The notes under the pieces: generated by a model | What the model was told of the DNA's origin: nothing | Seen by the model: the letters and a program-made list of their open reading frames with translations, nothing else | Database searches by the model: none | In this document: piece after piece, positions 44,743-48,591 of the stretch | Layout of the letters: each line of letters begins with the position of its first letter | Numbering within the stretch: position 1 is the stretch's first letter | Translations under genes and position numbers: made by a program | From: Phialocephala subalpina | Lineage: Eukaryota > Ascomycota > Leotiomycetes > Helotiales > Mollisiaceae | Direction: 5' to 3' | Assembly (NCBI GenBank): GCA_900073065.1 | Contig: FJOG01000019.1 | Location: 544,887-608,886 of the forward strand | Length of the DNA: 64,000 nucleotides

Positions 44743-46439
44743 TCATGCCTCGAATTGCGGAGTCTTCCTCGCTTTCGTCAGAGCCTCGACTCCGTATGCC
44801 AATTCTAGTAATTTCTGTTCCGAGTACGGGATTCCCAGTAACTCCAAACCAACCGGTAGGCCATCTTCTGTGAACCCGACAGGAATGGATATCGCAGGTT
44901 GTCTCAGTTGACTTCCTATGACGGTGTTGGCGGGAAAATGATTTTCTTTGAACCTCGGGCTAAGGACATCTTTGATCGTTGGTGCAGGAATCTGGACACT
45001 GGGGAAGGCGATAGCATCGAGCTTGTGCTCTGCCATGATGCCAATGACGATGCGCTGGAACTCATCCCGCTCATCCAGTCGCTTTGCGTATTGTGGGTCC
45101 TCGTACGGATGCTTGATACCAGAACCAAGATGATCGAACAGAGGAAGGGCTTGGTGGAATTGCTTGGATGAATGGATGCTTTCGACAGTCACACCCTTGA
45201 TGATCGGGTGTGCTGCGAGGAAGTTGTCGATATCGTATCGAGATCTGGAGTAGTATGTTGAGGTGAAACTGAGGTAATAGTCCAGATTGGGGATTTCCAC
45301 GTCAACTAATGTGGTTCCGGTCGTGAATTTGGACAACGCACTCTTCACAACACTATTAACCCCTGCACATTCGTCGCCTTGACCGAACACAGAATTGAGA
45401 ACACCGATACGAGCTTTTGATAAGGCACCTTCCGAGAGATTTGCAGCATAGCTCCCGCCCCTTGGAGGCCCGGCAAGAACCGCAGTCGCTGTGTATGTAT
45501 CCTTGGGGTCATGACCTGCCAAAACGTCCAGCATCAAAGCAGCATCCCGAACAGTTCTGGTCATGGGACCTGGCGTATCCTGTGTTTTCACTAACGGAGA
45601 CAGGCCACTTCTCGAGACGAGACCGACAGTAGGACGAAGGCCGACCAAATTGCAGAAGGATGCTGGAACTCTGATCGAGCCACCAGTATCTTCTCCGACA
45701 CCAATCAATCCGTAGTTTGCGGCAATGGCTGCACCAGTTCCAGCACTTGAGCCACCAGTCTCACGAGTGATGTCGTAGGGGTTGAGTGTCTCTCCGCTGA
45801 CTGAAGACGCAGAGTTAAACGATGCAGCAAAGTCTAGAGTGGGATGTAAGCTATCACGGTCACATGACTAGAAGGGGAACAAACCTGGCATGGTACTCTT
45901 TGCCATGATAACTGCTCCAGCTTCTCTCAATTTTCTGACAAGAGTTGAGTCTTGCACTGGAATATGCTTGCAGCATATATTGCCATATGTTGTCTCGACT
46001 CCTTTGGTGTCGCATTGATCCTTCACGATGACCGGAACTCCGTGCAGCGATCCAACGAAGGTCCCATGCTCCTTGTAATATGCATCCAAGGAGTCTGCTT
46101 CATCGAGAGCGAGTGGAGAGATAACTGTAATGGCGTTCAGCTTCGGCCCAACTTTATCAAGAGACTTGATGTGTTCGATGTAGGTTTCGACCAGCTGTCT
46201 GCACGTGTACTCTTTTCGTCTGTGAATCCGAGAATTAGCAATTCATATAGCCATGCATTCAAGAAAAAGTCCCAACGATTTTAGGACATTCACGACTCAA
46301 GGATAAGACCAGATGGGAACATTGCGGTCGGCAGAAGCGTGACTTACCGGTAGGCAGCGTGGACTTGGTCTATCGTCAGCTCATCGATTGAGACCATTTC
46401 GGGTGATGCTCTATAGATGGATACCGAGCAGTCAGGCAT
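44743..46439 (-). CDS. Amidase signature family protein
   Basis: Exons 46439-46348, 46219-45885 and 45833-44743 give 505 residues. The start is MPDCSVSIYRASPEMV; a second in-frame ATG 14 codons in is possible. The Ser-cisSer-Lys triad is complete: Lys in VPVIVKDQCDTKG, the cis-Ser in ETGGSSAGTGAA and the nucleophile Ser in GEDTGGSIRVP. Typical later motifs are VGLRPTVGLVSRSG, PGPMTRTVRDAALMLD, and RQPAISIPVGFTEDGLPVGLELLG near the end. The family hydrolyses amides, from small nitrogen sources to fatty-acid amides. No signal peptide is seen. No neighbour suggests the substrate. This gene is intact. Confidence 0.92.
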
Positions 46440-47065
46440 AGACTCGACTATCGACGATATACGAGGCAGAGACACTGAGGACTCTGAATGTCTTCGATGC
46501 CAAAGGTGGAGGAAGGAGGTCGGCCGAAGTAAAAGCCGACGGCTGCTAGAGATACTAGCGACACGCTAGACTACTTTGGATTTTATGCGGCGTTCCGAGG
46601 AGTTCTCCTGAATACAATAAACATCCCCCAGAAGAGCATCAAAACATGTCGAGTCCAAGCATTACATCTTATAGTTTCATACCTCGCGTTGTAAACGACT
46701 TGGGCCTGACATGGTGTCTTAGTTAGAGACCGCAGAAGCACTGAAAGTTCCCGTCGCCACCTCGCGTCCAGTAGCACCACGCCGCAAACCAGGCCCAAAA
46801 AGATCACCACCACAACAACATCCACGTAATTACATATCCTTTGAAATTCGGGTCTAAGCGCATTCAGGATTTCAGTCAAGTCCGTAAACCGCAATCTCTG
46901 CCCTTGAGCCTGCGTTGTGCATTTTAGAGTACCAAAGCCATTCCCTTCAATGAGTCAGCAGCGGCTCCATTATTCCCCATACTTTCGCGAATTCGTTTGG
47001 CGATGGATCAGACATGGCTCTATAGATTTAAATAAGAAGGTTTTCCGATCACACTAGCTTAAATC
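46440..47065. other. Intergenic region upstream of the tRNA gene
   Basis: Holds the amidase 5' flank. A minus-strand frame at 46583-46894 encodes a putative two-helix membrane peptide but has no other support. Confidence 0.35.
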
Positions 47066-47085
47066 GCTCCAATGGCGCAATGGTA

Positions 47086-47136
47086 GTAAGTTCGGAAAGA
47101 CTTCAACAAGCTCGGATTTGTAGCTTACCAGAGCAG
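47086..47136 (+). other. Spliceosomal-type intron candidate in the tRNA D-loop (51 nt)
   Basis: Begins GTAAGT, ends GAGCAG, with a possible branch site CTTAC at 47124-47128, 8 nt before the AG. Removing it joins AATGGTA to GCGC, restoring a 7-nt D-loop and a 4-bp D-stem. Length and signals match the small protein-gene introns in this window. Confidence 0.75.
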
Positions 47137-47186
47137 GCGCGCAAGACTTCTATAATCATGAGAAGATTAATCTTGAGGTTGTGGGT

Positions 47187-47238
47187 GTAAGCATGCCTGA
47201 AATCAACTATTCTTGAGCAAAACTAACGGTGGCAATAG
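47187..47238 (+). other. Spliceosomal-type intron candidate in the tRNA T-loop (52 nt)
   Basis: Begins GTAAGC, has a perfect branch-site word CTAAC at 47223-47227 and ends AATAG. Removing it restores the T-loop TTCGAGT and a perfect 5-bp T-stem. In DNA it separates GTGGGT from TCGAGTCC, so it splits the Pol III B box. Confidence 0.8.
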
Positions 47239-47257
47239 TCGAGTCCCACTTGGAGTG

Positions 47258-48591
47258 TTAGTATTAATCTTTTACCATGTCCTTATTGTTTGCAGTTTTT
47301 TTTCTCTCTCGAGCAGAAGAGGAGCTATTCCAATTCCGCTATTTTGCCGAACTCAACTTTTGGTGACCCAGTCAGACACGAGGATTTCACTCACAATGCG
47401 AACCTCTCGTTCCTAAAGTATTCTCTGTATGACGAGCTTTTTGAAGGAAAGCTACTTCACAGTCGTTCTAGTTCCTCCGTTATTGTTTCAGTATGGTAAA
47501 TTTTGCGTTTCATATATTTCGATATCACGTGAATCTCCTTCTCAATCTCTGAGTTTGTCGAGTTGAAATTTCGTTCAAACTGCTGCAATAGGTATATGAT
47601 ATCTTATACAAGCATTTCGAATGAGTCTGGCTCGCACTCTTAATAAGAGTCTGAGAGGCAAGCCGCGCCAGATCGTCTATTCTCAGATGATCTCTCAGCG
47701 CTTTCAATATCCCAGTCTTGAGGGTACATTATCACAAGCTGGGTTAGGCTATGAGGTTGTATCGTGCGAAGCGCCACGATTGTGGCCAATTGTCATCCTT
47801 ATTGAAAGAAGATAGACTAAGAAAGTCCAGGTGAGGCTGGGAGATTGAAAACGCTGGATACTCTCACAACTTCCTGGGCCGCCCTCGAATTAAAGCGTAT
47901 TCGTCACGAAGCTATATCTCGGGAACAGGAATCGGCTTCTCAAGGCAGCTCACCATTTGAGTTTGCATTGAGCGTCGGTCATAAATCTATCGCCGCACCT
48001 TTCCGCCGCATCTAGGGATATCCTCGAACAACCTCCAGAATGTACAGGGTGATTAAAGCTATTCCCTTAATCACACCAATCATGACGCATTTTTGAAACT
48101 TCGCTCATGTCATATCGGACGCTAAAATGGCATGGAAATGGTATTCTCTCGTTCGAAAATGCCAATTTGGTAGACTTTCACGATATTGGGAAGGAGGTCC
48201 GTCCACCGTCCACTTTCGCATCCAGACTTCGACCAGACTCAACGCGCTTCTACCTTCCATCAACGTGCAGGCCCTTGTGAGCGACACTCCCGCCTGCAGC
48301 TATCGCGTTGTCTCTCTCCAGGGACAGCTGAGATATGCAGCCAGTCACAGCCCTCTCCTACAGATATCTCCGCAAATGTCTTTCGGCGAGATCTGGATAG
48401 GCCCCGGGATGTGGGGTAACCCCATGGGGGCTGTGTTCCAGAGTGGACGGAGGAACATCAAAAGGTTCATCGAACCCCAAAGTCATTCGACATTCGCATT
48501 TCTGGTCTGATTGAGGTGTATTCTCACACGATTTTACGATTCTCATAGATTGACGAGATTCACACAAGATAACCGACAGAAAAAGAGCAGC
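47258..48591. other. Intergenic region downstream of the tRNA gene
   Basis: Starts with the TTTT terminator at 47271. Frames at 47621-47815 (+) and 48127-48510 (+) lack domains and splice context. The last part is the promoter of the transporter gene. Confidence 0.35.

What the first reader, a model, noticed from the sequence alone, without database searches (positions are those of the whole stretch)
47066..47257. tRNA-Arg(TCT) gene interrupted by two spliceosomal-type introns plus a normal tRNA intron
Seen: a perfect 72-nt tRNA cloverleaf appears only after removing three inserts. One is a canonical 17-nt intron after position 37. The other two have exact spliceosomal signals (GTAAGT...CTTAC...CAG, 51 nt, D-loop; GTAAGC...CTAAC...TAG, 52 nt, T-loop). 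Known: nuclear tRNA introns normally sit only in the anticodon loop and are cut by the tRNA endonuclease. Inference: this tRNA would need both the spliceosome and the tRNA endonuclease, or it is a precise double insertion of intron-like elements into a tRNA copy. I know of no described case but could not search. Full conservation of all stems argues against an old pseudogene.
Basis: partly seen in the sequence, partly recalled or inferred. Interest (0 to 1): 0.95.

Follow-up and report, generated by a model that had tools for sequence, protein, structure and literature searches.

The report
Spliceosomal introns inside fungal tRNA genes
A fungal transfer-RNA gene is cut by two introns of the kind normally found in messenger RNAs, and many other tRNA genes of the same fungus are cut the same way, so making its tRNAs probably needs the mRNA-splicing machine, which no source we could search describes.

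Summary
At window 47066-47257 a 72-nt tRNA-Arg(TCT) appears only when three inserts are removed: 51 nt (GTAAGT..CTTAC..CAG, D-loop), 17 nt (canonical, after position 37) and 52 nt (GTAAGC..CTAAC..TAG, T-loop). It is not alone. The genome (probably Phialocephala subalpina) holds at least 24 such genes with 38 inserts of 45-61 nt; CTAAY branch site in 35 of 38, YAG end in 35 of 38. At 151 listed sites of an upstream motif, 15 of 41 recognisable tRNA genes are interrupted; 0 of 1940 shuffles imitate this. The four Lys(CTT) genes found share two intron sites; their tRNA exons are identical while intron interiors have largely diverged, keeping the splice signals. That is the record of selection for splicing, not of pseudogenes. 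Word-based searches found no uninterrupted copy of Lys(CTT), Gly(TCC), Arg(TCT), Cys(GCA) or Glu(TTC). Best reading: functional tRNA genes whose transcripts need the spliceosome, plus the tRNA endonuclease where a canonical intron is present. Splicing itself is untested; RNA data would decide.

The parts
47021..47036 (+). Upstream motif TATAGATTTAAATAAG, shared by intact and interrupted tRNA genes and several U6-like genes; likely TATA-like Pol III promoter element
   Evidence: Exact match; motif or variants visible upstream of the tRNA genes; 547 sites with up to 2 mismatches against 153 for the reversed motif; at 14 or more of 16 bases upstream of 4 of 7 U6 matches
47066..47085 (+). tRNA-Arg(TCT) exon 1 (position 1 to D-loop)
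47086..47136 (+). Spliceosomal-type intron 1, 51 nt, in the D-loop (GTAAGT, CTTAC, CAG)
   Evidence: a CTTAC branch site also occurs in a 51-nt mRNA intron of the neighbouring amidase gene
47137..47152 (+). tRNA exon 2 (D-stem 3' strand to position 37, anticodon TCT)
47153..47169 (+). Canonical 17-nt tRNA intron after position 37 (holds AGAAG, complementary to the anticodon stretch CTTCT)
47170..47186 (+). tRNA exon 3 (position 38 to T-loop)
47187..47238 (+). Spliceosomal-type intron 2, 52 nt, in the T-loop; splits the B box (GTAAGC, CTAAC, TAG)
47239..47257 (+). tRNA exon 4 (T-loop to discriminator G)
47270..47303 (+). Downstream T runs (TTTT 47270-47273; T8 47296-47303), likely Pol III terminator
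   Evidence: a run of 5 or more T starts within 47 nt of the end of each of the 20 genes listed

Best explanation
This is a functional nuclear tRNA-Arg(TCT) gene of a helotialean fungus (probably Phialocephala subalpina) carrying two ordinary short spliceosomal introns besides its canonical tRNA intron, and it is one of many such tRNA genes in this genome. Shown: the architecture, its recurrence in at least 24 genes, mRNA-type splice signals, and the divergence pattern among paralogues. Inferred: an upstream TATA-like element recruits Pol III even where introns split the A or B box; the spliceosome joins the tRNA exons in the primary transcript; only then can the tRNA fold, so that the tRNA endonuclease can remove the canonical intron.
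For: Exact 72-nt tRNA after splicing. 24 genes and 38 introns, 45-61 nt; CTAAY branch 35 of 38, its A 9-14 nt from the end in 38 of 38 with the three exceptions counted, although the filter only asked for YTNAY at 5-30 nt; end YAG 35 of 38, AAG 3 of 38. G at donor position 5 in 38 of 38, but most forms the filter allowed demand it, so this is not independent. 0 of 1940 shuffles. Spliced interrupted genes score like intact ones: mean 111.9, n=20, against 111.0, n=16. The four Lys(CTT) genes found share two intron sites around a 9-nt exon; tRNA exons identical outside the canonical intron, intron interiors 0.62 and 0.67 identical against 0.59 and 0.57 for shuffles. The two Gly(TCC) genes found share two sites. 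The two Arg(TCT) genes differ only at two acceptor pairs, both compensatory. No T run of 4 or more in 38 introns (shuffle mean 4.3; 0.4% of shuffles reach zero), as Pol III transcripts need. Bulge-helix-bulge absent by a simple strict rule in 30 of 30 introns tested. A neighbouring protein gene has two mRNA introns with the same kinds of signal, one 51 nt. A U6 match (L189) has, by eye, a GTGAGT..CTAAT..TAG segment of 55 nt after its 5' hairpin, the known fungal U6 situation.
Against: No RNA data were available here, so neither transcription nor splicing is shown. Intact paralogues exist for Phe, Met, Ala(AGC), Gly(GCC), Ser(GCT), Val(AAC), Pro(AGG) and Arg(TCG), so those interrupted copies could be dispensable. 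The search for uninterrupted copies is word-based (its first look passed only 1 to 6 places per query) and would miss divergent ones. Identity of Lys intron 2 and Gly intron 2 exceeds the 95th percentile of shuffles, so part of the intron sequence is still shared by descent. Non-tRNA sites behind the same motif are not enriched for the signature (3 of 109 against 2 of 109 in each of two controls). Relatives could not be searched.
Confidence: 0.87

Rival explanations
1. Pseudogenes: intron-like elements inserted into spare tRNA copies, now inert.
For: Intact paralogues exist for several isoacceptors; [quoted passage not shown] One Phe locus, L132, lacks a 5' exon nearby and may be dead.
Against: Spliced copies score as well as intact ones; exons identical in four Lys and two Gly genes while introns diverge; compensatory acceptor changes in Arg; no uninterrupted near-identical copy of Lys(CTT), Gly(TCC), Arg(TCT), Cys(GCA) or Glu(TTC) found.
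Confidence: 0.06
2. The inserts are non-canonical tRNA introns cut by the tRNA splicing endonuclease, as in a red alga, nucleomorphs and archaea.
For: Several inserts at non-canonical tRNA positions beside a canonical one are known there (PMC4090602, passages). Relaxed half-motifs were not tested here; one intron (L131) has the central and outer helix by chance or otherwise.
Against: Central plus inner helix of a bulge-helix-bulge in 0 of 30 introns; central helix in 2 of 30, chance about 0.6. GT-AG ends with a placed CTAAY branch site are not expected.
Confidence: 0.03
3. The tRNAs are spliced by the spliceosome but the transcript that is spliced is made by Pol II, not Pol III.
For: Spliceosomal splicing is usually coupled to Pol II (recalled); introns split the internal A or B box in many of these genes.
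Against: The upstream element is shared with intact tRNA genes and 4 of 7 U6 matches; T runs follow the 20 genes checked; no T run of 4 or more inside 38 introns.
Confidence: 0.15
4. Assembly or sequencing artefact.
For: None found.
Against: 24 genes on different contigs, with different intron sequences and exact boundaries.
Confidence: 0.01

Closest known systems
Spliceosomal (mRNA-type) introns in fungal U6 snRNA genes
   Same: GT-AG introns in a small structured Pol III RNA, in fungi, gained several times (title of reference 13 in PMC5832005, passage; the rest recalled). One U6 match of this genome seems to carry one (L189, by eye)
   Different: One RNA species; here many tRNA families, up to two such introns per gene, microexons of 9-11 nt, and a second splicing system acting on the same transcript
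Spliceosomal introns in fungal U3 snoRNA genes (PMC5832005, passages)
   Same: Canonical pre-mRNA splice sites in a structured non-coding RNA; paralogues can differ in having the intron
   Different: U3, 133 of 138 introns in the 5' half; the 2017 paper says U3 and U6 were the only small structured RNAs known to be often interrupted by an intron
Short introns in nuclear rRNA genes of lichen fungi and other ascomycetes (PMC8527467, PMC3160393: listing and start of abstract only; Rogers 1993, title in the reference list of PMC11782384)
   Same: Short introns, some of mRNA type by title, placed in structural RNA genes of fungi
   Different: rRNA from Pol I, not tRNA; some are degenerate group I introns
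Non-canonical tRNA introns of Cyanidioschyzon merolae, nucleomorphs and archaea (PMC4090602, passages)
   Same: Several introns per tRNA gene, in D, anticodon and T arms, beside a canonical one
   Different: Those are 3-24 nt (Guillardia nucleomorph) or bulge-helix-bulge introns for the endonuclease; here 45-61 nt with GT-AG ends and a branch site
Canonical eukaryotic tRNA intron
   Same: The 17-nt insert after position 37
   Different: The other two inserts

Membership tests
Spliceosomal (U2-type) intron | GT (rarely GC) donor and AG acceptor | tested here: met
   37 of 38 GT, 1 of 38 GC, 38 of 38 AG; but the detection filter required these, so the test is that such segments, once removed, leave a tRNA, which shuffles never did
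Spliceosomal (U2-type) intron | Branch site of the fungal type at fixed distance | tested here: met
   CTAAY in 35 of 38, others CTTAC (1) or TTAAC (2); A at 9-14 nt from the end; the filter was much looser
Spliceosomal (U2-type) intron | Same signals as mRNA introns of the genome | tested here: met
   Two introns of the neighbouring amidase gene: GTAAGT..CTAAT..CAG and GTTTGT..CTTAC..TAG; a sample of two
Spliceosomal (U2-type) intron | Removed as a lariat by the spliceosome | not testable with these tools
   No RNA data
tRNA-endonuclease intron (bulge-helix-bulge) | Bulge-helix-bulge at the two splice sites | tested here: not met
   0 of 30 with central and inner helix by a simple strict rule; relaxed forms not tested
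Group I or II self-splicing intron | Catalytic core (far longer than 61 nt) | tested here: not met
   Lengths 45-61 nt; no Rfam family at gathering threshold in the window
Introner-like element | Introns at different sites share sequence | tested here: not met
   blastn among 30 introns: no match over 15 nt, many at the branch-site region; the two introns of L096 share 13 nt
Functional tRNA gene | Complete cloverleaf after removal of inserts | tested here: met
   ARAGORN scores 104.5-122.4 in 20 genes; 106.2-108.5 in the four added later
Functional tRNA gene | Expression and maturation | not testable with these tools
   No RNA data

The most novel reading that the evidence does not exclude
In this fungus translation depends on the spliceosome through its tRNAs: for Lys(CTT), Gly(TCC), Arg(TCT), Cys(GCA) and Glu(TTC) each gene found carries spliceosomal introns, so decoding of AGA, GGA, the two Cys codons and GAA needs spliced tRNA. 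Spliceosomal introns have invaded tRNA genes repeatedly because an upstream TATA-like Pol III promoter made the internal A and B boxes expendable. It would be a route of tRNA maturation not recognised before, and it hides many of these genes from standard tRNA finders.
Probability: 0.72. Interest if true: 0.97.

Novelty: new variant of a known kind. Interest (0 to 1): 0.94.

Why it matters
Nuclear tRNA introns are taught as the business of the tRNA endonuclease alone. Here spliceosomal introns sit in acceptor, D, anticodon and T arms of many tRNA genes, often two per gene. If spliced, this shows spliceosomal processing of a whole class of probable Pol III transcripts, links translation to the spliceosome, gives a natural set of repeated intron gains in non-coding genes of known structure (a direct handle on how introns are gained), and means that tRNA annotation in such fungi is incomplete: Rfam at the gathering threshold found none of the ten interrupted loci given to it (three acceptor-stem cases did score as partial tRNAs).

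Tried and rejected
Comparison with a strict-consensus set of putative mRNA introns from the fetched loci failed as a control: 58 hits against 54 in reversed sequence, so that set is mostly noise and its T-run comparison (P 0.014) is not used. General intron invasion of the genes behind the motif: not supported, though the three hits look good by eye (L048, L163, L175). L066 (insert in a tRNA-like gene of uncertain kind) and L132 (Phe 3' part without a 5' exon in the bases fetched) were left out of the 24. Seven U6 matches are listed as full-length by the model (48 of 3913 candidates scored); I first took this to mean that no insert is there, but the sequence before one match (L189) shows a likely intron within it. 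A one-mismatch hit to the Arg(TCT) 3' half (C67) was fetched and shows no tRNA by eye (L195). Common descent of intron sequences from an introner: no. DNA searches miss interrupted genes with short exons (the window gene, L148), so counts of interrupted genes are lower bounds. Paper searches (open-licence library, no preprints): none of the titles and abstract starts listed reports spliceosomal introns in nuclear tRNA genes (one search listed 30 of 70 papers, 12 of 22), so absence from print is not shown.

Full report
What is there. The window gene was checked base by base. Joining 47066-47085, 47137-47152, 47170-47186 and 47239-47257 gives GCTCCAATGGCGCAATGGTAGCGCGCAAGACTTCTAATCTTGAGGTTGTGGGTTCGAGTCCCACTTGGAGTG, which ARAGORN calls tRNA-Arg(tct), 72 nt, score 121.6, stems fully paired with a G-U at the first pair. 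The uncut window gene is invisible to ARAGORN and Rfam. The inserts are 51, 17 and 52 nt. The middle one sits after position 37 and contains AGAAG, complementary to the anticodon stretch, as in a canonical tRNA intron. The outer two begin GTAAGT and GTAAGC, end CAG and TAG, and have CTTAC and CTAAC near the end.

Which organism. The window lies in a 68.1 Mb, 119-contig genome. An amidase ORF at window 44743-45708 is 100% identical over 321 residues to PAC_11750 of Phialocephala subalpina; the next named species, Mollisia scopiformis, is 83%. For two other window proteins the lists shown name no P. subalpina record: 99% to an unnamed metagenome protein and 82% to Acephala macrosclerotiorum, 94% to Acephala macrosclerotiorum (best 120 of 4200); length limits and 90% clustering of that database can explain this. 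The published P. subalpina genome has 69.7 Mb, 45.9% GC and only 91 annotated tRNA genes for 20,173 gene models (PMC5148876, passages); the window has 45.8% GC. P. subalpina belongs to Helotiales, Leotiomycetes.

It is not a lone case. An Rfam tRNA search of the genome listed 38 hits (63 of 2196 candidates scored). Three of them lacked acceptor ends and proved to be tRNA genes cut in the acceptor stem by GT-AG inserts: Arg(TCT) L024, Thr(CGT) L032, Met(CAT) L033; a Phe gene cut after nt 25 lay beside another hit (L022). Intact and interrupted genes share an upstream motif TATAGATTTAAATAAG or a variant, present exactly in the window at 47021-47036. Searching for that motif samples genes without regard to tRNA structure: 547 sites with up to 2 mismatches against 153 for the reversed motif (only the first 100 exact sites were listed), and 51 sites of the variant ending in A, C or T against 0. 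Of these 151 listed sites, 140 distinct ones were fetched and scanned by script and 11 were already known tRNA genes. Totals: 26 intact tRNA genes (16, of which L042, L044, L113 and L123 look unusual, plus 10 known), 15 interrupted (14 plus L022), 1 dubious (L066), 109 without a recognisable tRNA. So 15 of 41 tRNA genes, 37%, are interrupted.

Method and chance. For each site all GT/GC-AG segments of 38-150 nt with a loose branch site were removed singly, in twos or up to threes and ARAGORN was run. Controls, made with the one- and two-intron version: 1940 dinucleotide shuffles gave no tRNA that appears only after splicing, and 97 reversed sequences gave none. Isotype names follow the anticodon as I read it after removing both kinds of intron; ARAGORN misnames several genes when a canonical intron is present, and L094 remains uncertain.

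The catalogue. 24 genes, 38 introns; 14 genes have two and 10 have one. Besides the window: Arg(TCT) L024; Thr(CGT) L032; Met L033; Phe L022, L131, L109; Pro(AGG) L079; Lys(CTT) L082, L184, L185, L186; Gly(CCC) L088; Ala L094; Arg(TCG) L096; Gly(GCC) L098; Ser(GCT) L114; Val L122, L124; Glu(TTC) L136; Cys(GCA) L137; Ala(AGC) L148; Gly(TCC) L180, L187. Sites lie in the acceptor stem (after nt 5 or 6), D arm, anticodon stem, variable region and T arm. Microexons of 9-11 nt lie between two introns in Lys, Gly(TCC), L094 and L096. Lengths are 45-61 nt, mean 51.7. Donors: GTAAGT 11, GTAAGC 7, thirteen other forms fewer, one of them a GC donor (L098). Ends: CAG 21, TAG 14, AAG 3. CTAAY in 35 of 38, the branch A at 9-14 nt from the end. 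G at donor position 5 is found in 38 of 38, but most donor forms allowed by the filter demand it; the branch site is the freer test, since the filter only asked for YTNAY within 5-30 nt. The neighbouring amidase gene has introns GTAAGT..CTAAT..CAG (128 nt) and GTTTGT..CTTAC..TAG (51 nt), the same kinds of signal.

Evidence of function. The four Lys(CTT) genes found have both introns at the same two sites. Outside the canonical intron their tRNA exons are identical, and so is the start of the 3' trailer (AATTCCCGAGTTCATGAT), while intron interiors are 0.62 and 0.67 identical against 0.59 and 0.57 for shuffled sequence; donor, branch and acceptor are kept. The two Gly(TCC) genes found show the same (0.63 and 0.69 against 0.58 and 0.56). 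The second introns of both sets exceed the 95th percentile of their shuffles, so some shared descent is still readable there. Two Phe genes share a site with unalignable introns (0.52 against 0.55 shuffled). The two Arg(TCT) genes differ at only four of 72 positions, forming two compensatory pairs of the acceptor stem, and in L024 the intron splits the 5' strand between these two pairs. Dead copies would not keep such a record.

Are there uninterrupted copies? DNA searches with spliced sequences do find intact genes (Phe L130; Ala(AGC) L188) but miss genes with short exons (the window gene, L148). With that bias no uninterrupted Arg(TCT), Lys(CTT), Gly(TCC), Cys(GCA) or Glu(TTC) copy appeared, and the 3' half of Arg(TCT) occurs without mismatch only in L024 and the window gene; the one place with a single mismatch shows no tRNA by eye (L195). 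A divergent intact gene could still be missed; the odd Cys-like L044 is an example. Intact paralogues do exist for Phe, Met, Ala(AGC), Gly(GCC), Ser(GCT), Val(AAC), Pro(AGG), Arg(TCG).

How it most likely works. The motif, at 14 or more of 16 bases, precedes 4 of 7 U6 matches (L121 exact, L189, L190, L192; weaker or none in three), and a T run follows each of the 20 tRNA genes checked. The 38 introns have no run of four T, against 4.3 expected from shuffles, with 0.4% of shuffles at zero. This fits Pol III transcription from an upstream element, with T runs selected against; it is inference. One U6 match, L189, shows by eye a 5' hairpin (CCCCTTCGGGG), then a 55-nt GTGAGT..CTAAT..TAG segment, then TTGGTCAATT, that is, an intron of the kind known in fungal U6. 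For the window gene the predicted minimum-energy fold of the unspliced transcript is not a cloverleaf, so spliceosomal removal probably precedes endonuclease removal of the canonical intron.

Against other mechanisms. Bulge-helix-bulge: 0 of 30 by a simple strict rule. Self-splicing: too short. Introners: no shared sequence beyond short words. Pseudogenes: see above.

Compared with print. The 2017 paper on U3 says that U3 and U6 are so far the only small structured RNAs known to be often interrupted by an intron (PMC5832005, passages). A 2014 review of tRNA introns names, in the passages seen, non-canonical eukaryotic introns in nucleomorphs and a red alga, calls D-arm and T-arm insertions supposed pseudogenes, and holds no word beginning spliceosom (PMC4090602). 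My searches listed no report of the present arrangement; preprints and most subscription papers were not searchable.

Verdict. I hold it very likely that these are real spliceosomal introns in functional tRNA genes; the missing proof is RNA.

Noticed in passing
L049, L059, L060, L069, L111, L116, L118, L129; L053, L104, L134; L047, L100, L133; L068, L070; L071, L110, L119 (downstream of the motif): Families of repeated non-tRNA sequences, probably unknown Pol III RNAs, follow the same upstream motif; of the 20 loci given to Rfam only a U6 (L121) and a 5S (L151, opposite strand) were named.
   Followed up: partly
L189 (C51:503760-503900): A U6 gene with a likely 55-nt spliceosomal intron (GTGAGT..CTAAT..TAG) after its 5' hairpin, seen by eye.
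   Followed up: partly
L048, L163, L175: Three non-tRNA sites behind the motif also hold a textbook GTAAGT..CTAAC..CAG segment; L048 and L163 look related. Not enriched over controls as a group.
   Followed up: partly
L082, L184-L186; L022, L109, L130, L131: Conserved 3' trailers after the tRNA (AATTCCCGAGTTCATGAT in four Lys genes; CTGCGA then a hairpin-like stretch in Phe genes), although introns diverged.
   Followed up: no
L042, L044, L058, L065, L066, L113, L123: Unusual tRNA-like genes with odd anticodon arms or large inserts.
   Followed up: no
L098, first intron: One GC-AG spliceosomal-type intron inside the anticodon stem of a tRNA-Gly(GCC).
   Followed up: partly
L132 and L183: Phe 3' part preceded by ..CATTTAG with no 5' exon seen in the fetched bases: a decayed copy or a much longer intron.
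   Followed up: partly
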